Source of the DNA: Thermoleophilia bacterium
GTDB taxonomy: Bacteria > Actinomycetota > Thermoleophilia > Gaiellales > Gaiellaceae
DNA length: 47,359 nucleotides
Assembly (NCBI GenBank): GCA_014534345.1
Contig: JACVRR010000004.1
Span: 1 to 47,359, forward strand
Direction of reading: 5' to 3'
Both the position numbers and the translations under genes were made by a program. Below are positions 3,664 through 33,232 of the stretch, piece after piece (within the stretch, counting starts at the first letter, position 1; every line of letters begins with the position of its first letter). The notes beneath the pieces were generated by a model. It saw only the letters and a list, made by a program, of their open reading frames with translations. It was not told the DNA's origin and searched no databases.

Positions 3664-3678
3664 GCGCGACCGTCCTGC

Positions 3679-3711
3679 CCGGCCGCATGCGGTGCCAGGC
3701 ACCGGACATGG
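3679..3711. repeat. REP-like palindromic repeat, copy 1
   Basis: This is a 33-base unit built on the perfect palindrome CGGTGCCAGGCACCG (7-base arms around one A) and followed by GACATGG. It matches copy 2 at 3768-3800 at 30 of 33 positions. It lies in the 157-base gap between the membrane protein and the sugar transferase. Such short, imperfectly duplicated hairpins resemble REP elements that are mobilised in trans by Y1 (RAYT) transposases. No such transposase is in the window. Confidence 0.6.
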
Positions 3712-3767
3712 CTCCCGCGGCCGTGTCCGAACGCCCGCGCGGCTGCGGAACAAGCGCGTCCCGCGCT

Positions 3768-3800
3768 CCGGCCGTATCCGGTGCCAGGCACCGGTCATGG
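3768..3800. repeat. REP-like palindromic repeat, copy 2
   Basis: This is the direct-orientation second copy of the 33-base unit at 3679-3711, 56 bases further on. Here the palindrome extends to 8-base arms (CCGGTGCC, A, GGCACCGG). The copy ends just before the sugar-transferase coding region and overlaps a possible ATG start at 3797, which is one reason the downstream GTG at 3821 is preferred. An RNA hairpin here could also affect read-through between the two genes. Confidence 0.6.
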
Positions 3801-3820
3801 CCGCGGGGGACGAGGCGGCG

Positions 3821-4402
3821 GTGAACCGGGCGGCCGACATCGCCGGCGCCGCGCTCGGGCTGGCGCTCGCCTCGCCCGTGCTCGCGGCCGCCGCGATCGC
3901 GATCAGGCTCGAGGACGGCGGGCCGATCCTCTACCGCCAGCGCCGCGTCGGGCGCCACGGGAAGGAGTTCGAGCTCCTCAAGCTGCGGACGATGGTCGTC
4001 GGTGCCGAGCGGCAGGGCGCGGGGTGGGCGGTCAACGAGGGCGACCCGCGCATCACCCGCGTCGGCCGCCTGCTCCGCCGCGGCTCGCTCGACGAGCTGC
4101 CCCAGCTCTGGAACGTCGTGCGCGGCGACATGTCGCTGATCGGCCCGCGGCCGACGCTGCGCTACCAGGTCGAGCGCTACACGCCGCGCCAGCGCAAGCG
4201 CCTCGAGGTGAAACCCGGGCTGACCGGCTGGGCGCAGGTGCATGGACGCGCGCGGCTGCCCTGGGAGGAGCGGATCGAGCTCGACGTCTGGTACGTCGAG
4301 CACCGCTCGCCGCGCGTCGACCTCGAGATCCTGCTGCGCACGCCGCTGGCGCTCTTCACCGGGACGTACAAGGGCGAGACGGGGGGGTGGCGCGCGCGCT
4401 GA
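3821..4402 (+). CDS. Initiating sugar-phosphate transferase (PglC/WcaJ C-terminal type)
   Basis: This is a bacterial sugar transferase of about 193 residues. Such enzymes move a phospho-sugar from a nucleotide sugar onto undecaprenyl phosphate, the committed first step of exopolysaccharide synthesis, at the inner membrane face. Visible motifs in order: an N-terminal re-entrant hydrophobic helix (LGLALASPVLAAAAIAI), the GGPILYRQRRVGRHG basic loop, KLRTM, RRGSLDELPQLWNV with the catalytic Asp-Glu pair, GDMSLIGPRP, and KPGLTGWAQVHGR. It has the small monotopic form without the four-helix N-terminal domain of full WcaJ. The GTG at 3821 has GAGG about 6 bases upstream and gives the usual short N-terminus. 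An in-frame ATG at 3797 inside the repeat is the alternative. Confidence 0.9.
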   Translation: MNRAADIAGAALGLALASPVLAAAAIAIRLEDGGPILYRQRRVGRHGKEFELLKLRTMVVGAERQGAGWAVNEGDPRITRVGRLLRRGSLDELPQLWNVVRGDMSLIGPRPTLRYQVERYTPRQRKRLEVKPGLTGWAQVHGRARLPWEERIELDVWYVEHRSPRVDLEILLRTPLALFTGTYKGETGGWRAR

Positions 4403-4410
4403 CGCCGTTC

Positions 4411-4416
4411 TAGGAT
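4411..4416 (+). promoter_or_regulatory. -10 element, leaderless start of 4423 gene
   Basis: TAGGAT lies exactly 6 bases before the ATG at 4423, a spacing that puts the transcription start at or next to the start codon. No ribosome-binding sequence is present. This is a predicted promoter. Confidence 0.5.
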
Positions 4417-4422
4417 CCGGTG

Positions 4423-4962
4423 ATGGGACGGGCCCCCGTCGCGCTCGTCGCCTCGCTCTGCGTGCTCGCCTCGGGCGCCGTCGCACACGCAGCCGCGGGC
4501 GACCCGTGGAAGCCGCTCCGGCGGCCGCTTCACTTGCCGTCGCTCGCGGTCGGCGAGCCGTGCCCGTTCTCGCAGGTGCGTCGGCGGCAGGGCGTGGCCG
4601 ACGCCCTCGGCGAGGAACCGCCGTGGGTCCACCCCTTCCCCGGCGGCTACCTGCCGCTGTCGCGCGCGCGGCCGCGCCGCGACGGCTGGTTCGCGTACCG
4701 GGTCGGCTGGATCGCGCCGCGCCGCCTCGCCGGCCACGTCCTCGTCCGCGGCCGCCGGATCGACCGGCTCGGTCCCCTCCGCTTCGCCGCGACCGCGACC
4801 GCGCGGCCGCGCGCCGAGCTGCGGCTGACGTTCACCGCCTCCCGGCGCGCCCGCCCGCACCGAGCGTGGCTGCTCGTTCGCTCACCCGGCTGCTTCGGCC
4901 TGCAGCAGGACGGCGCGACCTTCAGCGGCACGCTCGTGTTCGGCGCCCGGCTGTCCTCGTAG
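4423..4962 (+). CDS. Small secreted protein of unknown function
   Basis: The family is not recognised. The 179-residue product has a clear Sec-type signal peptide (GRAPVALVASLCVLAS, with a likely AHA-A cleavage at about residues 22-24). The mature domain is Arg-rich and predicted mostly beta. It has two widely spaced cysteines (GEPCPFS near residue 46 and SPGCFGLQ near 153) that could form an export-dependent disulfide. The ATG at 4423 is chosen because the -10-like TAGGAT is 6 bases upstream; a GTG one codon earlier is possible. Its position between the initiating transferase and the ATP-grasp gene suggests a surface or periplasmic role linked to the polysaccharide. That is context only. Confidence 0.72.
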   Translation: MGRAPVALVASLCVLASGAVAHAAAGDPWKPLRRPLHLPSLAVGEPCPFSQVRRRQGVADALGEEPPWVHPFPGGYLPLSRARPRRDGWFAYRVGWIAPRRLAGHVLVRGRRIDRLGPLRFAATATARPRAELRLTFTASRRARPHRAWLLVRSPGCFGLQQDGATFSGTLVFGARLSS

Positions 4963-4988
4963 CGGCTGGCGCCCGTCCACGCCGCCGT

Positions 4989-4994
4989 TACCCT
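4989..4994 (+). promoter_or_regulatory. -10 element, leaderless start of 5003 gene
   Basis: TACCCT ends 8 bases before the GTG at 5003, and there is no Shine-Dalgarno sequence. It is probably the promoter of a leaderless transcript carrying the ATP-grasp, Wzz-like and GT2 genes. Confidence 0.5.
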
Positions 4995-5002
4995 CTGCCC
5001 CG

Positions 5003-6007
5003 GTGACCGCCGTCCTGTTCACCTGCGCCGGCCAGCGCGTCGACATCGTCTCGGCGTTCGGCCGCGCCGGCGCGGTCACCGTGGCGGTCGACGTCGACCC
5101 GCTGGCGCCGGCGCTCTACCACGCCCACCGGCACACCCTCGTCCCGCGCGTGAACGACCCCGGCTACCTCCCGCGCCTGCGCGAGCTGGTCGCCGAGCAC
5201 GACGTCGCCCTCGTCGTCCCGCTGACCGACCTCGACCAAGAGCTGCTCGCCGAGCGGCGAGAGACCCTCCGCACGCCCGTGCTGCTCTCGCCCGCACCCG
5301 TCGTCGAGGCCATGGCCGACAAGTACCGGGCGGCCGCCTTCCTCGCCGAGCGCGGCATCGCCTCGCCGCCGACCTGGCTGCCGGCGGAGCTCCCCGCCGA
5401 CCCGCCTTTCCCGCTGCTCGTGAAGGCGCGCGCGGGCTTCGGCTCGCGTCACATCTACCGCGCCCACGATCGCGCCGAGCTCGACTTCTTCCTCCGCTAC
5501 ACGCCGGTCGACTCGATGGTGCAGGCGTGCTGCCGGGGCGAGGAGTTCTCGATCGACGTGCTCAGCGACTTCGAGGGGCGCTGCCTCAACGCGATTCCCC
5601 GCACGATGATCCAGTCGAAGGGCGGCGAATCCATCAAGGGGATGACGATCAAGGACTGGGAGCTGATCGATTTCGCCCGGACGGTCGCGGAGGCGCTCCC
5701 GATCTGGGGCCCGGCGAACGTGCAGTGCTTCCGCGAGCCGGGCGGCGGGCTGGAGGTGACGGATGTCAACCCGCGCTTCGGCGGCGGCTTTCCGCTGCCG
5801 CTGGCCGCGGGGAGCCGCTATCCGGAGCTCGCGCTCGCGCTGGCCACCGGGGCGAGGCCGGAGCCCGCGGTGGGCGACTTCCGCGAGGGCGTCGTGATGA
5901 CCCGCTTCTTCTCGGATCTCTGCCTCCTGCGCGACGGCGACGGCGCGCTCGTGCCGTTCGCCGAGGAGCTGCCCCGGGCCCTGGCCGCCAAGCCGGGCGA
6001 GGCGTAG
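5003..6007 (+). CDS. ATP-grasp carboxylate ligase, carbamoyl-phosphate-synthase-like
   Basis: The 334-residue enzyme has an N-terminal Rossmann-like pre-ATP-grasp domain (VLFTCAGQRVDIVSAF, about 1-110) followed by an ATP-grasp fold. That fold has the Gly-rich nucleotide loop LLVKARAGFGSRHIYR near residue 140, the basic strand FSIDVLSD, and the Mg/ATP-binding DVNPRFGGGFPLP near residue 250. ATP-grasp enzymes join a carboxylate to an amine or thiol through an acyl-phosphate. Stand-alone carB-like members occur in capsule and teichuronic-acid clusters, where they are thought to add amino-acid or amide decorations to sugars. Here it sits 4 bases upstream of a Wzz-like gene, which suggests glycan modification. 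The substrate is unknown. Confidence 0.85.
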   Translation: MTAVLFTCAGQRVDIVSAFGRAGAVTVAVDVDPLAPALYHAHRHTLVPRVNDPGYLPRLRELVAEHDVALVVPLTDLDQELLAERRETLRTPVLLSPAPVVEAMADKYRAAAFLAERGIASPPTWLPAELPADPPFPLLVKARAGFGSRHIYRAHDRAELDFFLRYTPVDSMVQACCRGEEFSIDVLSDFEGRCLNAIPRTMIQSKGGESIKGMTIKDWELIDFARTVAEALPIWGPANVQCFREPGGGLEVTDVNPRFGGGFPLPLAAGSRYPELALALATGARPEPAVGDFREGVVMTRFFSDLCLLRDGDGALVPFAEELPRALAAKPGEA

Positions 6008-6010
6008 GGC

Positions 6011-6877
6011 GTGGCGCGCCCCGTCACCCGCGTCGAGTTCGAACCCGAGGAGGAGGTCGACCTCTCCCGCTACGCCTCCGCGCTCGCGGCCCGCTGGTGG
6101 CTCGCGCTGCTGGGGCTCGTCGCGGGCGCGCTGGTCGGGTACGCGCTGGCGCTCGGGGGCTCGGACGTCTACCGCGCGCAGGCGCTCGTCGACCTCGGAA
6201 GCCCGCAGGCGCCGGGGGCGAGCGGGACGGTGCAGAGCCCCGGATCGCTGGTGACCAGGAGCCGAGAGATCGCCCGCTCGGAGCGGGTCGTGCGCCAGGT
6301 CGCCGGCGAGGTCGGCATCGCGCCCGGCCGGCTCCGCTCCGGCCTCTCGGTCCAGCCGGTGACGCAGACGGGCCGGGCGGCGGCGACGAGCCTGCTCGGG
6401 ATCACGGTCACCGGGGGCTCGCCGCGGCGGGTGTCGCGGGCCGCGAACGTACTCGCCACGGCCGTGGTCGAGCGTGCCTCGCCGTACGTGGAGGACAAGA
6501 TCCGGCTGATGCGCGAGCAGATCGCCGCGGAGCGGGAGCAGCTCGAGCTCGCCGAGCGGCAGATCCGCGCCGCGCTCGCCGTCGCCGACGACCCCGGCTC
6601 TTCGCCGAGCGAGCGGTTGCTCGCCGTCAGCCAGGCCGGCATCTACGAGCAGCGGCGCGCGGCCGCGCGGGACAACATCTTCCGGCGGCGCACCGAGCTC
6701 GCGCTCGCCGAGCACGTCGAGCAGCCGCGCCTGGTCGACCGGGCGACGGCGGTCAAGACGACCGCGCGGAGCCCGCGCAACTCCGCGGTCGTCGGCGCCG
6801 TGATCGGGCTGCTGCTCGGGATCGTCGCGGCGCTCGCCTGGGACCCGGTCGCGGGCGCGGTGCGCCGGCGCGCCTGA
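6011..6877 (+). CDS. Wzz/YveK-like polysaccharide chain-length/co-polymerase protein
   Basis: The 288-residue protein has the polysaccharide co-polymerase layout: a short cytoplasmic N-terminus (EEEVDLSRYASALAARWW), a membrane helix at about 30-50, a long external domain with a charged helical hairpin (IRLMREQIAAEREQLELAERQIRAAL is its core, about 160-195), and a second membrane helix at about 255-280. These proteins form rings in the inner membrane that set glycan chain length. The attached tyrosine-kinase domain found in some relatives is absent, as in YveK/CapA-type proteins. GTG start, 3 bases after the ATP-grasp stop. A separate kinase partner, if any, is not in the window. Confidence 0.85.
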   Translation: MARPVTRVEFEPEEEVDLSRYASALAARWWLALLGLVAGALVGYALALGGSDVYRAQALVDLGSPQAPGASGTVQSPGSLVTRSREIARSERVVRQVAGEVGIAPGRLRSGLSVQPVTQTGRAAATSLLGITVTGGSPRRVSRAANVLATAVVERASPYVEDKIRLMREQIAAEREQLELAERQIRAALAVADDPGSSPSERLLAVSQAGIYEQRRAAARDNIFRRRTELALAEHVEQPRLVDRATAVKTTARSPRNSAVVGAVIGLLLGIVAALAWDPVAGAVRRRA

Positions 6878-8371: not shown

Positions 8372-8971
8372 TCAGGAAGCGGGCTGCGTGCCGGGTGGGA
8401 CGACAAGCACCGTGGGGCGATAGTCGAGCAGCTGGAGTCTGCCGTCGAACGTTCGGCTGGCCAGCAGGTCGAGGGCGACGTCGGGATAGCGGTCGTAGAT
8501 CCGGTCTCGGCCGGTCGTTCCGGTGATCACGGGGAAGACGACCACCCGGAAACGGTCCACCAGGCCGGCCTCGAGCAGCGACCGACACAGGGTGAGGCTC
8601 CCGAGGGTGCGCATCGGGCTGGCGCCGTCCCGCTTCATTGCTGCCACAGCCTCCACCGCATCCGCGCTGACGAGCCGGGTGTTGGCCCAAGCCAGCGGGG
8701 CCTGGAGCGTCGAGGAGAACACCACCTTGGACGTTCTGGCAAGCCCGGCCGTGGCGGCGTCCTCCTCATCGGTCAGGGTTCCGGCCGAGGCGGCAATTCC
8801 GGACATCAGACGGTAGGTGTTCGCTCCCATCAAGATCGTGTAGTCGCGTTCCGGCTGCTGGCCGAGCCAGGCGAGATACTCGGGGCCCTGGAGCCCCCAC
8901 CAGCCAGGCCAGCCTTCCGCGGCGCCGTAGCCGTCGAGTGAGGTGATGAAGTCAACGACGAGCTCCTGCAT
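8372..8971 (-). CDS. Dihydrofolate-reductase/RibD C-terminal family protein
   Basis: This 199-residue protein has the DHFR-like fold used by RibD C-terminal reductases. It opens QELVVDFITSLDGYGAAEGW, with the SLDG turn after strand 1, continues with YTILMGANTYRLMSG (cofactor-side loop), KVVFSSTL, LGSLTLCRSLLEAGLVDRF (the Gly-rich NADPH-binding helix start) and VVFPVITGTTGRDRIY. These stand-alone proteins are common in actinobacteria, and their substrates are mostly unknown. The true folate enzyme is less likely because the sequence follows the YyaP/RibD_C pattern. The start is fixed by a strong AGGAGGGA 5 bases before the ATG. That is unusual in this window, where most gene starts lack such a site, and may mark an acquired gene. 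Confidence 0.86.
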   Translation of the reverse strand: MQELVVDFITSLDGYGAAEGWPGWWGLQGPEYLAWLGQQPERDYTILMGANTYRLMSGIAASAGTLTDEEDAATAGLARTSKVVFSSTLQAPLAWANTRLVSADAVEAVAAMKRDGASPMRTLGSLTLCRSLLEAGLVDRFRVVVFPVITGTTGRDRIYDRYPDVALDLLASRTFDGRLQLLDYRPTVLVVPPGTQPAS

Positions 8972-9393: not shown

Positions 9394-10470
9394 ATGACCA
9401 CGATCGCCAACGGCGACGCGGTGCTCCTCGACCCGCAGGACCTGCTCGAGTCGGCGCCGGACGCAATGGTGGTCGTGGACGAGCAGGGGATCATCCGCCA
9501 GGTCAACCGCCAGACGGAGCGTCTGTTCGGACATCCGCGCGAGAGGCTCCTCGGCCACCCGGTCGAGGAGCTGATTCCGGAGCGGTTCCGACAGAACCAC
9601 CAACGACACCGCGCGGGCTATGTGGCCGAGCCGCGGATGCGGCCGATGGGCGCCGGGCTCGAGCTCTACGGCCTCCGCCGCGACGGGACCGAGTTTCCGG
9701 TCGAGATCAGCCTCAGCCCGGTTCAGACGCGGGAGGGCCGGATCGTCATCTCCGCGATTCGGGACGTCACTGCCTGGAAGGAGGCCGACCAGCTCAAGGA
9801 CGAGTTCCTCTCGATCGTCTCGCACGAGCTCCGTACGCCGCTCACGACGATCAGCGGGTTCGCGCAGACCCTCGTTGCGCAAGCGGATCTGCTGCCAGAC
9901 GACATGAAGCGCGAGCTTCTTGGTCAGGTCATCGAGAGTTCCGACGAGATGACAGAGATGATCGATCAGCTGCTCGACTTCTCCCGCCTCCAAGCGGGCA
10001 AGGTCGCGCTGAGCCCCGAGCCCGTCGACCTGCGCAGCGTCGTCGATACCACTATCCGCGGCGCGGCTCGGGCTCTCGCCGAGCATGACGTCGAGATCGA
10101 CCTCCGGCAGGGTGTTCGGGTAACGACGGATCAGCGGGCGCTCCACCGGATACTCGTCAATCTGCTGACGAACGCCGCGAAGTTCTCGCCGGAGGGCTCG
10201 AAGATCACCGTCGGCGGCGGAGACGGCGACTCCGGAGTCGCCATCTTCGTCCGCGACGAAGGCGCGGGGATCGCGCCCGAGGACCAGGAGAAGATCTTCG
10301 AGCGGTTCCACCAGACGCGCGTCGTGCCCGGCAGACGCGGGACGGGGATCGGCCTCTCCATCGTCCGCCGTTACGTCGACCTCCTCGGCGGTTCCGTCGG
10401 CGTCGACAGCGAGCTCGGTCGAGGCTCCTGCTTCTCGCTCTGGCTGCCTCATCTCAACGAGTCGGCGTGA
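9394..10470 (+). CDS. PAS-domain sensor histidine kinase
   Basis: This is a 358-residue soluble kinase. A PAS domain (about 15-130, with [20 protein letters not shown] and [12 protein letters not shown]) is followed by a HisKA dimerisation helix with the phospho-acceptor His144 in SHELRTPL. The HATPase domain has the N box ([13 protein letters not shown]), the G1 box [10 protein letters not shown], the F box (IFERFHQT) and the G2 box GTGIGLSIV. There is no membrane segment, so it senses a cytoplasmic signal, possibly redox, oxygen or a small ligand through PAS. The ATG is supported by GATAAT 7 bases upstream. Its stop overlaps the GTG of the receiver gene by 4 bases, so the two form a pair. 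Confidence 0.92.
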
Positions 10471-10835
10471 ACGGGGCGCGAAGCGTCCTCGTCGTCGATG
10501 ACGAGGCCTCCCTCCGCCTGCTCGCCCGACTCAACCTCGAGGCGCACGGCTTCCGCGTCCGCGAAGCGGCGAGCGGCGAGGAGGCGATCGAGATCCTCGA
10601 GAGCTACGAGCCCGACGTCCTCCTCCTCGACATCCGGATGCCCGGCGTCGACGGGTGGGCGGTGCTCGAATGGCTCGAGTCGAATCAGCGGCTGCCGGCC
10701 TCCCGGATCATCGTCCTGTCCGCGCACGCGACGGGGCATGCCCTCGATCGGGCTCGCCGCAAAGGGCTCCGCTACATCAAGAAGCCGTTCCGGATCAACG
10801 AACTTGTCGACGCGGTGACCAAAGCCGCTGCGTGA
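10467..10835 (+). CDS. Single-domain response regulator (CheY-like receiver)
   Basis: The 122-residue receiver has no output domain. It has the acidic pocket (VVDDEASLR, Asp11-Asp12), the phosphorylation site Asp55 in [12 protein letters not shown], the switch Ser in IIVLSAHA, and the conserved Lys in YIKKPF. It is the presumed partner of the overlapping PAS kinase. With no DNA-binding domain, it must signal by protein contact or act in a phosphorelay. GTG start with a 4-base overlap. Confidence 0.9.
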
Positions 10836-11159
10836 ACGACGAGCCCGTCCGGCGGACGATCCTCCGTCTGCGCCGGCTCGTTCAGTGCCGATCGGCGGCT
10901 GCGCGATCTCGAGGAGGCGCGGCGCCGCGATCGCACGCAGGAGGTCGCACGTACGTTCCAATGCGCACGGTTCGGCTGGCAGTGGTTCGACTTCCACTCG
11001 AACGGATCGTTCGCGGAGGTCACGGTGAAGAGGTAACCCGTAGCCTTGCTTCTCGCCACGGTGGCCGCTCGAGCAGCCACACCAGTACAAGGCTGATCGC
11101 GGTCGCACCGTCGTCGTGTTCTCCGGTAGCGCGCGTAGGATCAGCGGCGAGGACGGGGC
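10836..11159. other. Interval with a possible gene fragment and a promoter
   Basis: No intact gene is seen in these 324 bases. A plus-strand open frame from about 10881 to the TAA at 11034-11036 reads RRLRDLEEARRRDRTQEVAR, then FGWQWFDFHSNGSF. It looks protein-like but has no start codon in a sensible place, so it is probably the tail of a lost gene. The last 25 bases hold a -10-like TAGGAT (11136-11141) for the downstream binding-protein gene. Confidence 0.4.
11136..11141 (+). promoter_or_regulatory. -10 element upstream of 11160 gene
   Basis: TAGGAT lies 18 bases before the ATG at 11160, with GAGG (11149-11152) between them as a modest ribosome-binding site. A short leader of about 10-12 bases is expected. 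Confidence 0.4.
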
Positions 11160-12536
11160 ATGGCGGCGAGGATGACCAGGCGGGAGTTCGTCGGCCGGGC
11201 GGCGGCCGTCGGTCTCGGCGCGCTCGCGGCGCCGGTGCTTTCCGCGTGCGCGGGTGGCTCCCAGGGCGGCTCCGTCGACCTGCGCGCCTGGTCACAGGTG
11301 ACCCCGCGCATCGACCGCTGGCGGATGAGGGCGCTCCGTGCCGCGGTGGCGGATGTCGAGGACTTCGAGGTCGAGCTGACCGCTCGCAACTTCGCGGAGG
11401 ATTGGCCCGAGTACCTGAACAGGTTCACGCTCGCTGCCTCGGCGCGGAACGCGCCCCACGTCGTCGTCGCCGGCCACGAGCTGTCGGCGCCTTGGTCCGC
11501 GGCGGGCTGGATCGAGCCCTTCGACGACTGCCGGGAGCGGTACGACGAGTTCGACGCGTTCGTTCCCGGGCTCTGGGACGCGGTCGAGTTCGAAGGCAGG
11601 GTCTGGGGCGCGCCCTTCGAGCCCGAGGCGCGACCGATGTTCTTCCACAAGCGCAAGCTGCGCGAGCTCGGGTGGTCGCAGGCGCAGGTCGACGAGCTTC
11701 CCGACCGCTTGGACGCCGGCACGTTCACGCTCGACGACCTCGTGCACACGAGCCGGCAGGCGATCGACCGGGGTGTCGTGCGCAAGGGCTTCGCCTACTG
11801 GCACCGGCCGCAGCCGGGCTTCGACTTCCTGCAGTACTACGTCGCGTACGGGGGCACGCTGCACGACGCGCAGCGCGGGAAGCTCGTCGTCCGCCGCGAC
11901 CCGCTTCGCGATTTCTTCGCGTTCCAGCGCCGTGTGGTCGAGGAGGAGCTGACGCCGAGGAACTTCATTCCCACGGAGTGGGAAACCTGGCACTCGACCG
12001 TGGCGGGCGGCGAGACGCTGTTCTGGAACGGCGGCATCTGGATGTGGGCCGAGTGGCTCGCCGGCTACATCGGCGACAGGGCCGAGGCGCACTTGTTCGA
12101 CTTCGTCGGGTACGGCGTCCAGCCGACCGGGGTGCGGGGCGAACGCGGGCGGACGCTCTCGCGTCCGCTCGCCTACTTCGTGACGTCCAGCCAGGCCTCC
12201 GGCGCGAGCCCCGAGCAGGTCGACGCAGCATGTGCGCTCGTCGCGAAGTCGATGACGCCGGACACCCGCACGCCCGAGGTGCTGGAAAGCGCGCATCTCG
12301 GCTGGCTGGAGTCTCAGGATCTTTCGCGTGACCGGTTCCTGGAGTCCGTCTCGTACATGATCCAGGACGGCCGTGCCTTCTTCATCCCGAACGACGTCAA
12401 CTTCGGTCAGTACAACACGATCATCTACGACCACATGCTGCGGGCCGAGCAGGGCGAGATGACCCCCGCCCAGGCCGCCGACGCCGTGGTCGCCCGCATG
12501 AAGCTCGAGCTGCGGGACGCCGTCGTCTTCGAGTAG
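11160..12536 (+). CDS. Orphan extracellular solute-binding lipoprotein (Tat-type signal, ABC family 1)
   Basis: This is a 458-residue family 1 (sugar-type) solute-binding protein. The N-terminus TRREFVGRAAAVGLGALAAP is a twin-arginine signal, and the following LSAC is a lipobox, so the mature protein should be a membrane-anchored lipoprotein from Cys at about residue 30. The rest shows the two-lobed binding-protein pattern: WGAPFEPEARPMFFHKRKLREL early, SRQAIDRG, and a WETWHSTVAGGETLFWNGGI segment in the middle. No permease or ATPase gene is adjacent. It sits between a kinase-receiver pair and a DUF4097/kinase operon, so it could feed a transporter elsewhere or act in sensing. An ATG four codons later (11172) would start closer to the twin-arginine motif. 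Confidence 0.85.
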   Translation: MAARMTRREFVGRAAAVGLGALAAPVLSACAGGSQGGSVDLRAWSQVTPRIDRWRMRALRAAVADVEDFEVELTARNFAEDWPEYLNRFTLAASARNAPHVVVAGHELSAPWSAAGWIEPFDDCRERYDEFDAFVPGLWDAVEFEGRVWGAPFEPEARPMFFHKRKLRELGWSQAQVDELPDRLDAGTFTLDDLVHTSRQAIDRGVVRKGFAYWHRPQPGFDFLQYYVAYGGTLHDAQRGKLVVRRDPLRDFFAFQRRVVEEELTPRNFIPTEWETWHSTVAGGETLFWNGGIWMWAEWLAGYIGDRAEAHLFDFVGYGVQPTGVRGERGRTLSRPLAYFVTSSQASGASPEQVDAACALVAKSMTPDTRTPEVLESAHLGWLESQDLSRDRFLESVSYMIQDGRAFFIPNDVNFGQYNTIIYDHMLRAEQGEMTPAQAADAVVARMKLELRDAVVFE

Positions 12537-12586
12537 CCGGGACGTACCCGCCCGGCCGTCGACTATCCATCGCGTCCAACGAGGGT

Positions 12587-12592
12587 TACCCT
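12587..12592 (+). promoter_or_regulatory. -10 element, leaderless start of 12600 operon
   Basis: TACCCT ends 7 bases before the ATG at 12600, and no ribosome-binding site is present. It is the likely promoter of the DUF4097-kinase-binding-protein operon. Confidence 0.5.
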
Positions 12593-12599
12593 TACTCGC

Positions 12600-13373
12600 A
12601 TGAGTACCGGGTACGCCGCCGCGCCGGCCGAGACCGCACACCGCGGGGCGTGGGCCCGCGTGCGCGGCCTGTCGCCGTGGCGGCTGGCCGTCGCCGCCTC
12701 CGCCGCCTCGCTCGGCGTGGCGGTCGCGCTGATGGCCGGCCTCTGGCTGGCGACGTCGGGAACGCGCTCGGCGTCGTATCCCTTCGCGGGGCCGCTGCTC
12801 GGGATCGAGATCGCGGTCGGGCACGGAGACGTCGAGATCCTCGGCGGCGGCCGCTCGAGCGTCCACGTCAGGCGGACGGAGCGCTACGCGTACGACCACG
12901 GGCCGCGGGAGCAGCTCGCGCTGGAAGACGGGGTGCTGAAGATCCGCTCCGACTGCGCGTCGCTCGTGATCGGTACCTGCTCGGCCGACTACGTCGTCGC
13001 GATCCCGGACAACGTCTCGGTGACGATTCGGGCCGCGAACGGCGACGTGCGGCTGCGCGGCTACCGCGGCTCCGCCGATGTCACGACGACGCGAGGCGGC
13101 ATCGCCGTGGACGGTTTCTGCGGGTTCGTCCTCCACGCGACGGCGGGCCGGGGAGACATCGACGTCGCCACCGCCTGCGCCCCCGAGCGCCTCGAGCTCC
13201 GCAGTGAACGCGGCGACGTGACGGCAGTCGTGCCGCCGGGGCGCTACCAGGTCGACGCCGACACCAACGAGGGCCGCGCGACGGTTCGCGGCATCGCCAC
13301 GGCCGACGACGCGCCGTGGAAGATCCAGGCGTTGAGCGGTCGCGGCGACGTGACCGTCAAGGCGGGCTCGTGA
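12600..13373 (+). CDS. Membrane-anchored DUF4097-like beta-repeat protein
   Basis: The 257-residue protein has a short cytoplasmic N-terminus, one membrane helix (LAVAASAASLGVAVALMAGLWLA is its region, about 31-52) and an outside beta-rich domain. The domain repeats strands of the type GHGDVEILGG, NGDVRLRGYRGSADVTTTRG, GRGDIDVATA and SERGDVTAVV. These short GD(V/I)-centred repeats are the mark of the DUF4097 (putative adhesin/auto-transporter-like) right-handed beta fold. DUF4097 proteins often sit beside two-component or anti-sigma genes. This one overlaps the downstream kinase by 4 bases (GTGA), which implies co-translation and perhaps an extracytoplasmic accessory role. Biochemical function is unknown. 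Confidence 0.82.
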   Translation: MSTGYAAAPAETAHRGAWARVRGLSPWRLAVAASAASLGVAVALMAGLWLATSGTRSASYPFAGPLLGIEIAVGHGDVEILGGGRSSVHVRRTERYAYDHGPREQLALEDGVLKIRSDCASLVIGTCSADYVVAIPDNVSVTIRAANGDVRLRGYRGSADVTTTRGGIAVDGFCGFVLHATAGRGDIDVATACAPERLELRSERGDVTAVVPPGRYQVDADTNEGRATVRGIATADDAPWKIQALSGRGDVTVKAGS

Positions 13374-14866
13374 GCACGGCAGCCGTCGCCGGCGACCAGC
13401 TCGCGCTGCGAGCCCACGGAGCCGGCGCGGCTCGGACCGCCGTCTACATCCTCCTCGCGCTGCCGCTCGGCGTCGTGCACTTGGTCGCGCTGCTGCCGCT
13501 CGCCGTCGTCTCTCCGGCCGCGCTGTGGCGCCTGGCCGAGGTCGAGCGGACGCTGGCGAACCGGCTGCTCGGCGCCCGCATCCCCCCGCTTCCGTACCGT
13601 CGCGCCGAGGCCGTCGGGGGTCCCCCGCGCAGTGTGCTCGCCCTCATACTGCTGCGGCTCCCGCTCACCGTTCCCGTCGCCGTCCTCGCCCTGCTCCCGC
13701 TGGCGGTCACGGTCCAGCTGGCTCGTTACGGGCTCGAGGGCGTCTGGAACACCTCCGATCGGTACCTGGGGCCGTGGGCGCTCGGCCCCGTCGTCGGCGT
13801 GTTGCTCTGGGTCTTCGCCGCTGCCGCGGGCGTCGTCTCGCTCGCGGTGCTCGACGAGCTGCGGGGACCGCTGCGAGCGCTCGTGATCCGCCCTCTCGCC
13901 TCGGTACCGACCGCGGCCGTCGCCGTGCGCGAAGCGCTCGCCGAGCGCATCGGCGACCGGACGCTCGCGCTCGCGTACTGGCTGCCCGAGCGGGAGGCGT
14001 TCGTCGACGAGCGCGGCCTGCCGGTGGAGCTCCCCGACCCCGCGTCCGGCCGCGCCTGGACGGAGGTGGCCCACGAGGGGCGCCGGGTCGCCGCGATCGT
14101 GCACGACGCCGAGCTCGACGCCCGGCCGGAGCTCGTCCGCGCCGCCGCCAGCGGCGCGGTGCTCGCGCTCGACAACGAGCGTCTGAAGGCCGAGCTCCGG
14201 GCGCGCATCGAGGCCCTGCAGACGTCTCGTACGCGCATCGTCGAGGCCGGGCTCGAGGCGCGGAGGCGCATCGAGCGGGACCTGCACGACGGGGCGCAGC
14301 AGCAGCTCGTCGCCCTCGCGCTCGACCTGCGGATGCTGCGGGCACGTCTCGCGTCCGACCCGGCTGCGGCGCAGCTCGCCGACGCGTCGCTCGAGAAGCT
14401 GCAGGCCGCGCTCGACGAGCTGCGGGAGCTCGCCCGCGGAATCCACCCGGCGATCCTGACCGACCGCGGGCTCCCCGCCGCGCTGGACGCGCTCGTCGCG
14501 CGCGTGCCGGTCCCGGTCGAGTCCTCGGTCGAGCTCGAGGAGCGCCCACCCCGGGCCGTGGAGGCGGCCGCGTACTTCGTCGTCGCCGAAGCGCTCACGA
14601 ACGTCGCCAAGTACGCCCGGGCGAGCCAGGCCTGGGTCCGTGTCCGGCGCGTCGACGACGCGCTCGAGGTGGACGTCGTCGACGACGGCGTCGGCGGCGC
14701 CGATCCCGCGAACGGCTCGGGACTCCGAGGACTCGAAGACCGCGCGGTCGCCGTCGACGGCACGCTCGACGTCCACAGCCCGCCGGGCGGTGGGACGCGC
14801 ATCGCCGCCCGTTTCCCGATCGACGCGCTCGCGCCGTCCCCCTCCGCGGGGCCGGCCGCTTCGTGA
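13370..14866 (+). CDS. Membrane sensor histidine kinase (HisKA_3/NarL-partner type)
   Basis: The 498-residue kinase has an N-terminal four-helix membrane sensor domain (about 20-170, the 'putative sensor' type with paired helices and a short outer loop near RYGLEGVWNTSDRYLG). A coiled linker (about 265-300) leads to the HisKA_3 motif RRIERDLHDGAQQQLVALAL containing the acceptor His. The HATPase domain has ALTNVAKYARAS (N box) and DDGVGGADPANGSGLRGL (G boxes). Such kinases normally phosphorylate LuxR-type regulators. Both ends overlap neighbours by 4 bases: DUF4097 upstream and a solute-binding lipoprotein downstream. That is unusual and suggests the binding protein is part of the sensor. Confidence 0.92.
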   Translation: MSTAAVAGDQLALRAHGAGAARTAVYILLALPLGVVHLVALLPLAVVSPAALWRLAEVERTLANRLLGARIPPLPYRRAEAVGGPPRSVLALILLRLPLTVPVAVLALLPLAVTVQLARYGLEGVWNTSDRYLGPWALGPVVGVLLWVFAAAAGVVSLAVLDELRGPLRALVIRPLASVPTAAVAVREALAERIGDRTLALAYWLPEREAFVDERGLPVELPDPASGRAWTEVAHEGRRVAAIVHDAELDARPELVRAAASGAVLALDNERLKAELRARIEALQTSRTRIVEAGLEARRRIERDLHDGAQQQLVALALDLRMLRARLASDPAAAQLADASLEKLQAALDELRELARGIHPAILTDRGLPAALDALVARVPVPVESSVELEERPPRAVEAAAYFVVAEALTNVAKYARASQAWVRVRRVDDALEVDVVDDGVGGADPANGSGLRGLEDRAVAVDGTLDVHSPPGGGTRIAARFPIDALAPSPSAGPAAS

Positions 14867-15891
14867 GCCGGTCGCGCTCGCTCGTCACGCTGCTCGCTGT
14901 CCTCGCCGCGCTGCTGCCGGCGGCGTGCAGCGGCGACTCGAGCGAGCCCGACGCGGCGCCTGCCGAGCCGGTCGGGACGGTCGCCGACACGGGGACGGCG
15001 CGGCCGCTCGAGCGGAGCGTCGACATCGCGGTCGTCACGCACGGCGAAGCGTCGGACCCGTTCTGGGCGGTCGTGAAGAAGGGCATCGATCATGCCGCCC
15101 GCGACATGGGCGCGACGGTCACGTACAGCGCGCCCGACGTGTACGAGCCGATCCGCATGCGGGAGCTGATCGAGGTCGCCGTCGCGAGCCGGCCGAACGG
15201 GCTCGTGGTCACGATTCCCGACGCGGACGTCCTCGCGCCGGCACTCGCGAAGGCCGTGCGCGCCGGCATCCCGGTCGTCGCGTTCAACACCGGGCTGGGC
15301 GTCTACCGTCGCCTCGGGGCCCGGCTCTACGTCGGTCAGCCCGAGGACGACGCCGCCTTCGCGGCTGGACGGCGGATGGCGTCCCAGGGCGTCCGCAACG
15401 CGCTGTGCGTGAACCACGAGCCGGGCGTCGCGAGCCTCCGCGAGCGTTGCCGGAGCTTCACTGCGGCGCTCGCGAGGTCGGGCGGGACGGCGCGGGTGGT
15501 GACGGTTCAGCTCCAGGACCCCGAAGCGGCCAGGCGTCGCATCGCCGCGGCCGTCTCCACGCGGGGCGTCGACGGCATCCTCACGCTGGGACCCGGCGGG
15601 GCGGCGCCGGCGCTCGAGGCGCTCCGCGCGACCCGTCGCCTCGGGAAGGTCGCGTTCGGGACGTTCGACCTGTCCCCCGAGGTGCTGCGCGCCGTGCACG
15701 CGGGTGAGATGGAGTTCGCGATCGATCAGCAGCCGTTCCTGCAGGGCTACCTCCCGGTCGTTCTGCTGACGCAGTACGAGCTGTACGGCGTGCTGCCTGC
15801 CCGTGGCTCCGTCGTGCCGACGGGGCCCAGCTTCGTCACCGAGCGCGACGTCGCGCGCGTCGTGCGGCTGAGCGAAGCGGGGATTCGCTAG
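14863..15891 (+). CDS. Periplasmic sugar-binding-type lipoprotein (Peripla_BP_4) coupled to the kinase
   Basis: The 342-residue protein has a lipoprotein signal (SLVTLLAVLAALLPAACSGD, lipobox PAAC) followed by a LacI-like type I periplasmic binding fold. Marks of that fold are VDIAVVTHGEASDPFWAVVK at the first strand, GIDHAARDMGATVTYSAPD, GLVVTIPDADVLAPAL, VGQPEDDAAFAAGRRM and FGTFDLSPEVLRAV. These resemble ribose/xylose-binding proteins that can also present ligand to chemoreceptors or kinases. It overlaps the histidine kinase stop by 4 bases, and no sugar ABC permease or ATPase follows. A sensory partner role is therefore more likely than import. Ligand unknown. Confidence 0.87.
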   Translation: MSRSRSLVTLLAVLAALLPAACSGDSSEPDAAPAEPVGTVADTGTARPLERSVDIAVVTHGEASDPFWAVVKKGIDHAARDMGATVTYSAPDVYEPIRMRELIEVAVASRPNGLVVTIPDADVLAPALAKAVRAGIPVVAFNTGLGVYRRLGARLYVGQPEDDAAFAAGRRMASQGVRNALCVNHEPGVASLRERCRSFTAALARSGGTARVVTVQLQDPEAARRRIAAAVSTRGVDGILTLGPGGAAPALEALRATRRLGKVAFGTFDLSPEVLRAVHAGEMEFAIDQQPFLQGYLPVVLLTQYELYGVLPARGSVVPTGPSFVTERDVARVVRLSEAGIR

Positions 15892-15967
15892 CGCACGGCG
15901 GACGCGACGGAAAGAGTGTGGCCAGCCGTACCGCCAGACCCGGCTCTGCCTGCCACCATCCGGTTCG

Positions 15968-16318
15968 ATGACGACCATTCTCCTCGTCGACGACCACTCG
16001 AGCTTTCGGCGGACCGCGCGCGCGCTTCTCGAGAGCGAGGGATTCGACGTCGTCGGCGAAGCGGCCGACGGCGCGTCCGCGCTCGAAGCGGTCGAGGCGC
16101 TCGCCCCGGACGTCGTCCTCTTGGACGTTCACCTCCCCGACATCGACGGCTTCGAGGTCGCCGCGAGGCTGCGGCGAAGCGGCGACGCGGCGGCCGTCGT
16201 CATGATCTCGAGCCACGACGCGCGCGACTACGGCGGGCTGGTGGAGGAGAGCGGCGCGCGGGGCTTCGTCCCGAAGGCAGAGCTCTCGGGTGCGGCGCTG
16301 TCCGCGCTCCTCGGATGA
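15968..16318 (+). CDS. Single-domain response regulator
   Basis: The 116-residue receiver domain has LLVDDHSSFRR (acidic pair Asp8-Asp9), the phospho-acceptor Asp53 in LLDVHLPDIDG, a conserved MISSHDA switch serine and FVPKAEL with the Lys. The NarL-type N-terminus (DDHSSFRRTARALLESEGF) normally precedes a LuxR helix-turn-helix, but the frame stops just after the receiver. It is either a dedicated short regulator or a truncated NarL protein. It lies 76 bases after the solute-binding gene and is the obvious receiver for the 13370 kinase. Confidence 0.88.
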   Translation: MTTILLVDDHSSFRRTARALLESEGFDVVGEAADGASALEAVEALAPDVVLLDVHLPDIDGFEVAARLRRSGDAAAVVMISSHDARDYGGLVEESGARGFVPKAELSGAALSALLG

Positions 16319-16439: not shown

Positions 16440-17690
16440 ATGGCCGAGCTGCCGACGGGGACCGTGACGTTCGTGTTCACGGACCTGGAGGACTCGACCG
16501 GCCTCGTCTACCGCCTCGGTGACGGCTATCGCCGCGTGATCGGCGAGCACCGCAGCCTGGTGCGCGCGGCCGTCCGCGAGTGGCGAGGGTACGAGATCGA
16601 CTCTCGCGGCGACGAGTTCTTCCTGGCCTTCGAGAGCGCGCAGGACGGCGTCGACGCCGCGCTCGCGATTCAGCGCGCCCACGAGTCGCATCGCTGGAGC
16701 GGCGGGCGCCCCGTCCGGGTGCGGATCGGGATCCACACGGGAGAGCCCGCGATCGAGGACGACGACTACGTCGGCATCGACGTGCACCGTGTCGCGCGGC
16801 TGTGCGCCGTCGCCCACGGCGGCCAGGTGCTGCTCTCGCAGGCGACCGTCGACGCGGTCGACGACGTCGAGGTCAGGGACCTCGGCGCGTATGAGCTCAA
16901 GGGGCTCCCCGAGCGCGAGCGCGTCTACCAGCTCGTCCGGGCCGGAGGCGAGAACGAGTTCCCGCCGCTTCGCGACGTCGGCGGGATCGGCACCGGCGCG
17001 CAGGCCGAGCCGGTCGGGGGAGGCTCCGGCAGGGACGGCCGGAGGCTGCGGGTCGCCCTCGCCGACGACTCGGTGCTGCTGCGCGAGGGGATCGCCCGCC
17101 TGCTCGCCGACGCCGGCTTCGAGGTCGTCGGGCAGTCGGGCACCGCCGAGGACCTCCTGCTCAAGGTGCGGAGCTGGGCGCCCGACGTCGCGGTCGTCGA
17201 CATCCGCATGCCGCCGACGCAGACGGACGAAGGGCTGCGCGCCGCGCAGGAGATCCGCGAGAAGCACCCGGATGTCGGCGTGCTCGTCCTGTCGCAGCAC
17301 GTCGAGCCCGCGTACGCGATGGAGCTCCTGGCCGAGAACGCGGAGGGCGTCGGCTACCTGCTCAAGGACAGGGTGTCGGACGTCGACGAGTTCGCAGCCG
17401 CGGTGCGCCGGGTCGCCGAAGGGGGTTCGGCGCTCGATCCCACGCTCGTCACGCAGCTCGTGGGGCGGCGGCGAAAGCACGACCCGATCGACGAGTTGAC
17501 GCCGCGCGAACGGGAGGTGCTCGCGCTGATGGCGGAGGGCCGGTCGAATCACGCGATCGGCGAGCGGCTCTTCATCACGCCGCGTGCCGTCGAGAAGCAC
17601 GTGACGAGCATCTTCGGGAAGCTCCGCCTCCCGCCGGCGGCTGAGGATCACCGTCGCGTGCTCGCGGTCCTCGCCTTCCTGCGGGCGTAG
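16440..17690 (+). CDS. Class III nucleotide-cyclase domain fused to NarL/LuxR-type response regulator
   Basis: The 416-residue protein has three parts. Residues 1-165 are a class III adenylyl/guanylyl cyclase-homology domain: GTVTFVFTDLEDSTGLVYRL (first metal Asp), SRGDEFFLAF (second metal region), VRIGIHTGEP, and DYVGIDVHRVARLCAVAHGG followed by GQVLLS. Residues about 200-320 are a receiver (VALADDSVLLREGIARLL, phospho-site Asp254 in AVVDIRMPP, LLKDRVSD). Residues about 350-410 are a LuxR helix-turn-helix (LTPREREVLALMAEGRSN, then PRAVEKHVTSIFGKL). The usual transition-state Asn is replaced by His in DVHRVARL, so catalysis is doubtful and the domain may only bind nucleotide. The start is supported by TAGACT 6 bases upstream. 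No kinase gene is adjacent. Confidence 0.9.
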   Translation: MAELPTGTVTFVFTDLEDSTGLVYRLGDGYRRVIGEHRSLVRAAVREWRGYEIDSRGDEFFLAFESAQDGVDAALAIQRAHESHRWSGGRPVRVRIGIHTGEPAIEDDDYVGIDVHRVARLCAVAHGGQVLLSQATVDAVDDVEVRDLGAYELKGLPERERVYQLVRAGGENEFPPLRDVGGIGTGAQAEPVGGGSGRDGRRLRVALADDSVLLREGIARLLADAGFEVVGQSGTAEDLLLKVRSWAPDVAVVDIRMPPTQTDEGLRAAQEIREKHPDVGVLVLSQHVEPAYAMELLAENAEGVGYLLKDRVSDVDEFAAAVRRVAEGGSALDPTLVTQLVGRRRKHDPIDELTPREREVLALMAEGRSNHAIGERLFITPRAVEKHVTSIFGKLRLPPAAEDHRRVLAVLAFLRA

Positions 17691-17825: not shown

Positions 17826-20114
17826 ATGAGCGAGAGAGCGAACAACGGAGACGCGAAGCGCCGAGCCGCCCACGAACGGCGTTCCACGGGGGCGCTCGCC
17901 GGCTTGACGAGGGCGTTCGCCAGCCACCCGTGGCGCGTCGTCGCCGGCTGGGTCGGAATCGTCGCGGCCCTGATCGTCCTGGTGGCGGCGGTCGGCGGCG
18001 GCCTGCGCGACGAGTTCCAGATCCCGGGCTCGGACTCGCAGCGGGCGATCGACCTGATCGAGTCCGAGTTCGCCTCGGAGCAGGGCGGCGTGCTCAACGT
18101 CGTCTTCGCCGCGCCCGCGGGCGAGCGGCTCGACACGCCGAAGCGGCGCGCGACGATCGAAGCGGCGATCGCGCGCCTGCGGTCGAAGGAGTTCGCGCCG
18201 ACCCCGGACGAGGCCGGCCTCGTGAACGTCGGCGACCCCTTCGGCGGGGGCACGGTCTCGGACGACGCGCGCATCGCGTACGCGGAGGCGCAGTTCGACC
18301 GCGCGATCTACGAGGACGACCGCGACGCCGTCGTCGCGGTGCAGGAGGCGGTCCGTGCGAGCGTCGCGCCGGCCGGCGTCACCGTCGAGTTCAACGGCGA
18401 AGCCGAGTTCCCGCCCGTCGAGCAGGGCGCCTCGGAGGTGCTCGGGCTGCTGGCGGCGATCCTCGTCCTGCTCGTCGTCTTCCGGACGTTCGTCGCCATG
18501 TTGATCCCGATCGCGCTCGCGATCACGGCCGTCGCCACGGCGTTCCTGCTGCTGTTCATCCTCGCGGGCCTGACCGACATCAACACGATCACGCCGATCC
18601 TCGTCTCGATGATCGGGCTCGGCGTCGGAATCGACTACTCCCTCTTCATCGTCACGCGCTTCCGCCAGCTGCTGCACGAGGGCCTCTCTCCGCGAGACGC
18701 CGCGGCCGAGGCGGGGGCGTCGGCCGGGCGCGCCGTGGTGTTCGCCGGGCTCACGGTCGCGATCTCGGTCACCGGCCTCGCCTTCTTCGGGCTGGACTTC
18801 GTGACCAAGCTGGGCATCGGCAGCGCCCTGGGCGTGCTCACCACCGTGCTGATCGCGAACTCGCTGCTCCTGGCCGTCCTCGCGCTGCTCGGGCACAAGA
18901 TCGACCGGGTGAGGGTCCCGTTCCTCGCGCGAGTGGACGACTCGGAGGCCGCCCGCGAGAACACGCTCGTCGCCCGCTGGGGCCGGTTCGTGACCGCGAA
19001 CGCCCGGATCGTGTTTCCGGTCGTCCTGCTCGTCATCCTCGGCCTGGCCTCCACGTCGGCGCTCGTGCGCCTCGGCGCCGCCGACCAGGGAACGCAGCCG
19101 AGGGAGCAGACGAGCCGGAGGGCGTACGACCTGCTCGCCGAGGGCTTCGGCCCGGGGTTCAACGGCCCCATCCCGATCGTCGTGGACGTGAACGCCGACC
19201 CGCAGGCGCCGCGGCGGGTCTACGAGGGGCTGCAGGACCTCGAGGGAGTCGCCTCGGTGCGCGAGCCGCAGCTCAACGAGGAGAAGACGGTCGGGATCGT
19301 CTTCGTCACGCCGACGTCCGCCCCCCAGGACGACGCGACCGCCGAGCTGGTCGACCGTCTGCGCAGCGAGGTCGTTCCCGCCGCCACGGACGGTGGCGAC
19401 GCGGTCGCCTACGTCTCCGGCCAGACGGCGGCGTTCAAGGACATCGCCGATCGGATCATGGAGCGGCTGCCCCTCTTCCTGCTCTTCATCGTCGGCGTCA
19501 CGTTCGTCGTGCTGGCGATGGCCTTTCGCTCGATCGTCGTCTCGGCGACCGCGGCGATCACCACCGTCCTCTCGGCGTTCGTCGGCTTCGGCGTGCTGAC
19601 GCTGGTGGTGCAGGAAGGCCACCTGCTCGGGCTCACCGGTCTCGACCGGACCGGTCCGATCGAGACGTTCGTGCCGCCGATCGCCTTCGCGATCCTGTTC
19701 GGGCTCTCCATGGACTACATGGTGTTCCTGATGAGCCGGATCCGCGAGGAGCACGTGCACGGCCTCGAGACGCGCGCCGCCGTCGACCACGGAATCGCGG
19801 CGATCGGGCGGGTGGTCGTCGCCGCGGCCGTGATCATGGGGACGGTGTTCGCGGCCTTCGTCCTGAGCGCCGACCGCGTGCCGAAGGAGTTTGGCCTCCT
19901 GCTCGCCGTCGCCATCCTCACCGACGCGCTGATCGTGCGCATGACGCTCGTGCCGGCGCTGCTCACGCTGCTGCGCGAGCGGTCGTGGTACATCCCGGCC
20001 TGGCTCGACCGGTCGCTCCCCAACGTGACGATCGAGCCGCCGCACGACGGCGAGGCGCGTCGGCGCGTGCGCGGCGCCGAGCCGGCCGCGCGCCCCCGGC
20101 CGAGCGAGGCCTGA
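17826..20114 (+). CDS. MMPL/RND-family membrane exporter
   Basis: The 762-residue protein has the two-half MMPL plan: helix 1 (VVAGWVGIVAALIVLVAAVG), an external domain (about 65-205), five to six helices, then a second helix with a second external domain and a final helix bundle. The proton-relay Asp-Tyr pairs are present in both halves, in GVGIDYSLFIVTR and GLSMDYMVFLMSR. These proteins use the proton gradient to move lipids or hydrophobic compounds across the inner membrane. The ATG at 17826 follows GCGAGG by a short spacer and removes an unlikely upstream extension. Length is usual for non-mycobacterial MMPLs. It ends 18 bases before a strong hairpin. Substrate unknown; no regulator gene is directly attached. 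Confidence 0.92.
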   Translation: MSERANNGDAKRRAAHERRSTGALAGLTRAFASHPWRVVAGWVGIVAALIVLVAAVGGGLRDEFQIPGSDSQRAIDLIESEFASEQGGVLNVVFAAPAGERLDTPKRRATIEAAIARLRSKEFAPTPDEAGLVNVGDPFGGGTVSDDARIAYAEAQFDRAIYEDDRDAVVAVQEAVRASVAPAGVTVEFNGEAEFPPVEQGASEVLGLLAAILVLLVVFRTFVAMLIPIALAITAVATAFLLLFILAGLTDINTITPILVSMIGLGVGIDYSLFIVTRFRQLLHEGLSPRDAAAEAGASAGRAVVFAGLTVAISVTGLAFFGLDFVTKLGIGSALGVLTTVLIANSLLLAVLALLGHKIDRVRVPFLARVDDSEAARENTLVARWGRFVTANARIVFPVVLLVILGLASTSALVRLGAADQGTQPREQTSRRAYDLLAEGFGPGFNGPIPIVVDVNADPQAPRRVYEGLQDLEGVASVREPQLNEEKTVGIVFVTPTSAPQDDATAELVDRLRSEVVPAATDGGDAVAYVSGQTAAFKDIADRIMERLPLFLLFIVGVTFVVLAMAFRSIVVSATAAITTVLSAFVGFGVLTLVVQEGHLLGLTGLDRTGPIETFVPPIAFAILFGLSMDYMVFLMSRIREEHVHGLETRAAVDHGIAAIGRVVVAAAVIMGTVFAAFVLSADRVPKEFGLLLAVAILTDALIVRMTLVPALLTLLRERSWYIPAWLDRSLPNVTIEPPHDGEARRRVRGAEPAARPRPSEA

Positions 20115-33013: not shown

Positions 33014-33019
33014 GCACCC

Positions 33020-33025
33020 ACGGTA
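33020..33025 (-). promoter_or_regulatory. -10 element, leaderless start of 33013 gene
   Basis: On the minus strand, TACCGT ends 6 bases before the GTG at 33013. It supports that start over the upstream ATG, which it would leave untranscribed. Confidence 0.5.
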
Positions 33026-33187
33026 AACCGGACCGGCCGCCCGCGCATCCACCTCGGCGAGGATCCCCCTCGCACCAGCGTCTGATCACCACTCCACCGC
33101 GCGTCGGAGAAACGCGGCCCCCGATATCGGCCTCCGCGGCGAGCCGAAATCAGGCCCCGCGCCGACGAGATGCGGCCTGCCGCGTCG

Positions 33188-33193
33188 TAGCGT
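33188..33193 (+). promoter_or_regulatory. -10 element for the ABC/lipid operon
   Basis: TAGCGT lies 39 bases before the ATG at 33233, with GAAAGG (33219-33224) as a ribosome-binding site 8 bases before that ATG. A leader of about 30 bases is expected. The operon faces away from the two-component pair. Confidence 0.4.
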
Positions 33194-33232
33194 CGTTCGC
33201 TGACCCCGGCCAGCGAGCGAAAGGTGACCAGG

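What the first reader, a model, noticed from the sequence alone, without database searches (positions are those of the whole stretch)
12600..16318. Candidate ligand-sensing module: DUF4097, histidine kinase and solute-binding lipoprotein co-translated
Three genes join by 4-base overlaps, with the periplasmic sugar-binding-type lipoprotein directly after the kinase, no import genes, and a receiver lacking its DNA-binding domain 76 bases on. The likely reading is a three-component sensor in which the lipoprotein presents ligand to a kinase whose own outer loop is small, and DUF4097 acts at the surface. I do not know of a described system with this set.
Basis: partly seen in the sequence, partly recalled or inferred. 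Interest (0 to 1): 0.65.

Follow-up and report, generated by a model that had tools for sequence, protein, structure and literature searches.

The report
Conserved sugar-sensing three-gene signalling module
A soil-type bacterium carries a small conserved gene set in which a binding protein, related to those that normally import inositol-like sugars, has lost its importer and is tied to a membrane signalling kinase and a surface-anchored helper protein, so it probably senses a nutrient instead of importing it.

Summary
DUF4097 (12600-13373), a NarL-type kinase (13370-14866) and a lipoprotein SBP (14863-15891) overlap by 4 bases each. A lone receiver follows after 76 bases. The same three-gene order recurs in 16 distinct loci of 13 Thermoleophilia genomes. 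The module SBPs form one clade (support 100) inside the myo-inositol/rhizopine ABC-binding proteins. Of the 80 nearest named relatives, 8 sit after DUF4097-kinase without ABC genes; 70 sit beside an inositol-type permease without the kinase. Three single-contig genomes hold a module-type SBP but no inositol-type permease. The kinase has four membrane helices and an outer loop of about 13 residues. Kinase-linked DUF4097s carry an extra cysteine pair (18/18 versus 0/8), pointing to a site outside the cell. One correction: the lone receiver is not the sole output; it pairs with the next gene (cyclase-REC-LuxR, 16440-17690), as in relatives. Most likely this is an SBP-coupled three-component sensor for a cyclitol-like solute. 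The principle is known (LuxPQ, TorTS, XylFII-LytS, CuaDSR); the DUF4097 plus loop-poor kinase combination appears undescribed. Ligand, protein contacts and regulon are inferred, not shown.

The parts
12600..13373 (+). Membrane-anchored toastrack (DUF4097) protein: N-terminal anchor helix about residues 28-54, four cysteines (119, 127, 174, 193), predicted outside the cell
   Evidence: PF13349 36 bits; aligned with 6 module relatives, all four Cys invariant; C174/C193 in 18/18 kinase-linked and 0/8 other copies
13370..14866 (+). Sensor histidine kinase: helices in two hairpins, outer loop about 13 residues (127-139), cytoplasmic linker region, HisKA_3 (phospho-His306 by motif) and HATPase_c
   Evidence: Pfam; PF13796 Sensor in 6 of 7 module kinases but not in this one; helices; 4-base overlap
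14863..15891 (+). Lipoprotein solute-binding protein of the inositol/rhizopine SBP family (Peripla_BP_4), without its own transporter
   Evidence: 145 bits PF13407; NF052284 310 bits, below its cut-off 420; best PDB sequence and fold match 4RU1; one clade with the other module SBPs
15968..16318 (+). Stand-alone receiver (REC) with the usual phosphoacceptor residues
   Evidence: PF00072 90.8 bits; homologues at 59-65% identity beside LuxR-type regulators or kinases in L052, L055, L060/L184, L185, L186, L200-L204
16440..17690 (+). Class III cyclase domain - REC - LuxR (GerE) regulator: likely transcriptional output
   Evidence: Pfam; REC-LuxR half 63-72% identical to regulators next to REC/kinase genes in other genomes; fused form also next to the paralogous kinase of the same genome (L048)
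17826..20114 (+). MMPL-family exporter, same strand, possible target gene; link not conserved
   Evidence: PF03176 280 bits; start from gene call

Best explanation
The three genes form a ligand-sensing module. The SBP descends from an ABC transporter for inositol-like sugars (cyclitols) but has no transporter. It is held on the outer face of the membrane by its lipid and binds a solute, probably a cyclitol. Its closed, loaded form is read by the kinase. Because the kinase has almost no outer domain of its own, contact is made either with its membrane helices and short loop or through the membrane-anchored toastrack protein outside the cell. The kinase then phosphorylates a LuxR-type regulator: here the cyclase-REC-LuxR protein downstream, with the stand-alone receiver as a second phosphate acceptor. 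Shown: gene order, conservation, single origin of the SBP clade, retained sugar pocket, absence of an inositol-type permease in single-contig genomes, tiny outer loop. Inferred: ligand class, SBP-kinase and toastrack contacts, direction of control, target genes.
For: Three-gene order in 16 distinct loci, mostly with 4-base overlaps. SBPs of the module are one clade, SH-aLRT 100, nested among inositol ABC SBPs. Clean split among 80 named relatives: 8 with DUF4097+kinase and no ABC, 70 with permease and no kinase. DUF4097-linked kinases are one clade, SH-aLRT 100. G017 keeps DUF4097-kinase and a module-clade SBP at separate sites. No inositol-type permease in G017, G320, G364. Pocket positions F67 (V in two), W68, N142, R195, D269, Q289 kept. 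Control: 25 PF13796-kinase loci sampled across the phylum have no DUF4097 and no SBP of this kind next to them; 21 have a LuxR-type regulator within the fetched flank. Of 11 characterised SBP-kinase couples, 10 are encoded adjacently or very near (PMC11113362).
Against: No interaction or ligand data. Adjacency can mislead: for the SBPs encoded near AgtS in Pseudomonas aeruginosa no binding to the AgtS ligand-binding domain was detected (PMC11113362). DUF4097-kinase pairs without the SBP exist (L049, L050, L185, L186), so the kinase can work without it. Most module loci have no regulator next to them. The window SBP departs at five columns that are otherwise invariant or nearly so (T143, Y156, A165, V189, S198), so its ligand may differ. 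It is the only genome of its family in which the module was found, and it is a 69%-complete MAG.
Confidence: 0.7

Rival explanations
1. The SBP still serves import: it delivers its sugar to a permease encoded elsewhere and is merely co-transcribed with its regulator.
For: Same family and pocket as importing SBPs; generic CUT2 permeases occur in most of these genomes.
Against: Single-contig genomes G017, G320, G364 lack any inositol-type permease; genomes that do have one (G228, G157, G234) carry a separate SBP with it, in another clade; none of the 18 module SBP loci has a sugar-import ABC gene adjacent.
Confidence: 0.12
2. The module is an envelope-stress system of the Lia/PSP type: toastrack plus kinase sense membrane or wall damage, and the SBP is an accessory that binds a wall or lipid-derived fragment such as an inositol headgroup.
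For: Toastrack proteins couple to two-component systems in Lia-like operons (PMC11237479); DUF4097-kinase pairs without the SBP exist; an MMPL exporter lies downstream.
Against: No LiaI/LiaF, PspC or PspA protein was seen among the genes scanned in the window; that paper predicts toastrack inside the cell, whereas the cysteine pattern here suggests outside; a sugar pocket conserved across the module SBPs fits solute sensing better.
Confidence: 0.15
3. Fortuitous or merely co-regulated neighbours with no joint function.
For: The SBP gene can be separate (G017) or missing (L049, L050, L185, L186).
Against: Order kept while the SBPs diverged to 45-59% identity, over three families and with translational overlaps; where separated (G017), both parts remain in the genome and in the corresponding clades.
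Confidence: 0.03

Closest known systems
SBP-coupled sensor kinases (LuxP-LuxQ, TorT-TorS, XylFII-LytS, CuaD-CuaSR)
   Same: SBP gene beside a kinase gene, SBP works as a sensor part; XylFII is of the same fold (XylFII and the XylFII-LytS complex are among the fold matches)
   Different: Those kinases, as I know them, have a real outer ligand domain that the SBP docks on; here the kinase has a loop of about 13 residues and a separate anchored toastrack protein is always co-encoded
myo-inositol / rhizopine CUT2 ABC transporter SBPs (4RU1 ACEI_1806, NF052284)
   Same: 35-53% identity to the window SBP, same fold, same pocket positions, same conserved Cys pair C182/C196
   Different: No permease or ATPase; separate clade; below the NF052284 equivalog cut-off
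Lia/PSP toastrack systems (LiaG, VraT)
   Same: DUF4097/toastrack protein encoded with a two-component kinase
   Different: No LiaI/LiaF/PspC/PspA seen; toastrack predicted outside; an SBP is present
PF13796 Sensor-kinase + LuxR regulator two-component systems of Actinomycetota
   Same: Kinase architecture
   Different: The gene after the kinase is the SBP, not the regulator; DUF4097 precedes it (0 of 25 control loci show either)

Membership tests
SBP-coupled (three-component) sensor kinase system | SBP gene adjacent to a membrane histidine kinase gene, conserved across genomes | tested here: met
   16 distinct loci
SBP-coupled (three-component) sensor kinase system | SBP not committed to its own transporter | tested here: met
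   No adjacent import ABC genes; no inositol-type permease in three single-contig genomes
SBP-coupled (three-component) sensor kinase system | Kinase with an outer domain that docks the SBP (feature of the structurally known cases, from memory) | tested here: not met
   Outer loop of about 13 residues
SBP-coupled (three-component) sensor kinase system | Loaded SBP changes kinase activity | not testable with these tools
   Needs biochemistry
SBP-coupled (three-component) sensor kinase system | Cognate response regulator | tested here: inconclusive
   REC + LuxR-type regulator adjacent in the window and in L060/L184; absent near most Solirubrobacter modules
Rhizopine/inositol ABC substrate-binding protein (NF052284) | Score above curated cut-off 420 bits | tested here: not met
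   310 bits
Rhizopine/inositol ABC substrate-binding protein (NF052284) | Adjacent permease and ATPase | tested here: not met
   None in the window or in module loci
PF13796 Sensor kinases | PF13796 match | tested here: inconclusive
   6 of 7 module kinases match, best E 2.2e-18; the window kinase itself does not, and it is about 17 residues shorter in the first hairpin
Lia/PSP toastrack stress system | DUF4097 with a two-component system | tested here: met
   PF13349 above cut-off next to the kinase
Lia/PSP toastrack stress system | LiaI/LiaF-TM, PspC or PspA partner | tested here: inconclusive
   None among the window genes that were Pfam-scanned; the neighbours of the other loci were not scanned for these domains

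The most novel reading that the evidence does not exclude
The toastrack protein is a detached outer ligand domain: a membrane-anchored, disulfide-stabilised platform that docks a transporter-less inositol-type SBP and relays its closure to a kinase that has no outer sensor domain. This would be a four-part ligand-sensing design (SBP, toastrack adaptor, loop-poor kinase, REC/LuxR output) not described before, and would give DUF4097 an extracellular receptor role.
Probability: 0.35. Interest if true: 0.65.

Novelty: new variant of a known kind. Interest (0 to 1): 0.52.

Why it matters
It gives a testable ligand class for a large kinase type (PF13796) whose signals are, to my knowledge, unknown. 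It shows an inositol importer SBP recruited once into signalling. It offers a defined system in which the function and topology of the widespread but unexplained DUF4097/toastrack domain can be tested: the published prediction is intracellular, the cysteine evidence here points outside.

Tried and rejected
Distant permease pairing: rejected from the single-contig genomes. The lone receiver as the sole output: rejected, because it comes as a pair with a LuxR-type regulator next to it. A regulatory palindrome AGGGTTACCCT at 12582-12592, 7 bases before the DUF4097 start, is rare in the window (0.05 expected), but its core was not found in the other module loci, so it was dropped. DUF4097 copies in family f5 and elsewhere (L191-L198) are not next to a kinase and were used only as a contrast set. 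A kinase-SBP complex model could not be run; the kinase model alone has modest confidence (pLDDT 69.8). Literature searches found no paper combining these parts; the library holds open-licence papers only. The Herrou and Crosson paper on inositol/ribose discrimination was not held.

Full report
What is there. The four genes lie exactly as described: DUF4097 12600-13373, kinase 13370-14866, lipoprotein SBP 14863-15891, receiver 15968-16318. Both inner junctions are GTGA overlaps, and 76 bases separate the SBP from the receiver. Pfam gives PF13349 for the first, HisKA_3 + HATPase_c for the kinase, Peripla_BP_4 (145 bits) for the SBP and Response_reg for the receiver. The window is a whole contig of a 2.4-Mb MAG, 69% complete.

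Conservation. Searching the class with the SBP and reading the neighbourhoods showed DUF4097-kinase-SBP in the same order in six loci of a second family (f10). A class-wide DUF4097 search and a named-genome scan added more. The total is 18 loci. S. deserti CPCC 204708 and Solirubrobacter sp. CPCC 204708 share a strain label and have identical module proteins in the trees, so I count them once, which leaves 16 loci in 13 genomes. One module (G320, L180) has a frameshift near the kinase's C-terminus. Overlaps of 4 bases recur at most junctions. A phylum-wide sample of 396 genomes found no such DUF4097 outside the class at E 1e-25. In the window's own family, only this genome gave a strong DUF4097 match of the module type in the class-wide sample.

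Origin of the SBP. By sequence its best PDB match is 4RU1, and the AlphaFold model (pLDDT 83.5) also finds 4RU1 first. That protein, ACEI_1806, is described as a verified myo-inositol transporter SBP (PMC10747050). The nearest annotated plasmid relatives sit in inositol operons. In a tree of 104 SBPs the module SBPs, plus one orphan in G017, are one clade with SH-aLRT 100 inside the ABC-linked ones. Among the 80 best named loci, 8 have DUF4097 + kinase and no ABC genes; 70 have an inositol-type permease and no kinase; two (L111, L137) have neither detected. The ribose-type pocket positions F67, W68, N142, R195, D269, Q289 are kept in the module SBPs, with V for F67 in two (the mapping uses RbsB contacts recalled from memory). 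The window copy deviates at T143, Y156, A165, V189 and S198, so its ligand may not be inositol itself.

Not for import. With an inositol-type permease as query, single-contig genomes G017, G320 and G364 gave only weak generic matches (best E 9e-20, 1e-11, 4e-19), although each has a module-clade SBP. Permeases that sit beside such SBPs are about 40-79% identical to the queries. G228, G157 and G234 do have an inositol ABC operon, with its own SBP in a different clade.

Kinase and toastrack. DUF4097-linked kinases form one clade, SH-aLRT 100, apart from the 7-8-helix kinases of REC-kinase-regulator operons. They have two hydrophobic hairpins and an outer loop of about 13 residues. PF13796 Sensor matches 6 of 7 of those tested but not the window's own kinase, whose first hairpin is about 17 residues shorter. 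Toastrack cysteines 174 and 193 are present in 18 of 18 kinase-linked copies and 0 of 8 others; 119 and 127 are in all 26. Paired cysteines plus an N-terminal anchor suggest an outside location. This departs from the intracellular placement proposed for toastrack in PMC11237479; it is inference, not a topology measurement.

Output. The stand-alone receiver is 59-65% identical to receivers that sit beside LuxR-type regulators or kinases in other genomes: REC-kinase-regulator in L052, L055 and L200-L204, REC-regulator-DUF4097-kinase in L185 and L186, REC-regulator convergent with the module in L060/L184. The regulator's REC-LuxR half is 63-72% identical in most of those places. In the window the regulator bears an N-terminal cyclase domain, as does the one next to the paralogous kinase of the same genome (L048). 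Most Solirubrobacter modules have no regulator next door, so their output must be encoded elsewhere. DUF4097-kinase pairs without the SBP also exist (L049, L050, L185, L186); their genomes give only weak SBP matches, so the SBP was either added to, or lost from, a working pair.

Mechanism and known kinds. SBP-stimulated kinases are established, and 10 of 11 characterised couples are encoded side by side or very near (PMC11113362); CuaD-CuaSR is a worked case (PMC10384115). The same source warns that adjacency is not proof: no binding to the AgtS ligand-binding domain was detected there. What differs here is a kinase without an outer docking domain and an always co-encoded outer toastrack partner. 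I therefore rate the three-component sensor reading at 0.7, and the toastrack-as-adaptor reading at 0.35.

Verdict. Real, conserved, and a new variant of a known kind. Ligand, contacts and target genes need experiments.

Noticed in passing
window 9394-12536: PAS-kinase (9394-10470) overlapping a receiver (10467-10835), followed by a second orphan SBP (SBP_bac_1 family, Tat-type lipoprotein signal, 11160-12536) that ends 63 bases before the DUF4097 gene; another kinase-SBP neighbourhood.
   Followed up: no
window 12582-12592: Near-palindrome AGGGTTACCCT just upstream of the DUF4097 start; 0.05 matches expected in the window, core not found in other module loci.
   Followed up: partly
L048 (G000:C90) 3577-6527: The same genome has a paralogous multi-helix kinase directly followed by another cyclase-REC-LuxR regulator, 55% identical to the window's.
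   Followed up: partly
L201 7466-10721; L203 and L204: REC-kinase-LuxR operons in f10 genomes lie next to an ABC exporter-type ATPase (with a large multi-helix protein after it in L201), suggesting exporter control by this regulator family.
   Followed up: no
L035 9567-10589 and L182 6629-8883: In single-contig genome G017 the module is split: DUF4097-kinase and the SBP lie far apart, both still in the module clades.
   Followed up: yes
window 31206-36555: Another regulator-like gene and kinase-like gene divergent from an ABC ATPase and an FtsX/MacB permease (Pfam-confirmed for the permease), a layout often seen in antimicrobial response.
   Followed up: no
L180 about 8600-8700: Frameshift near the C-terminus of the module kinase in G320; sequencing error or decay not resolved.
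   Followed up: partly
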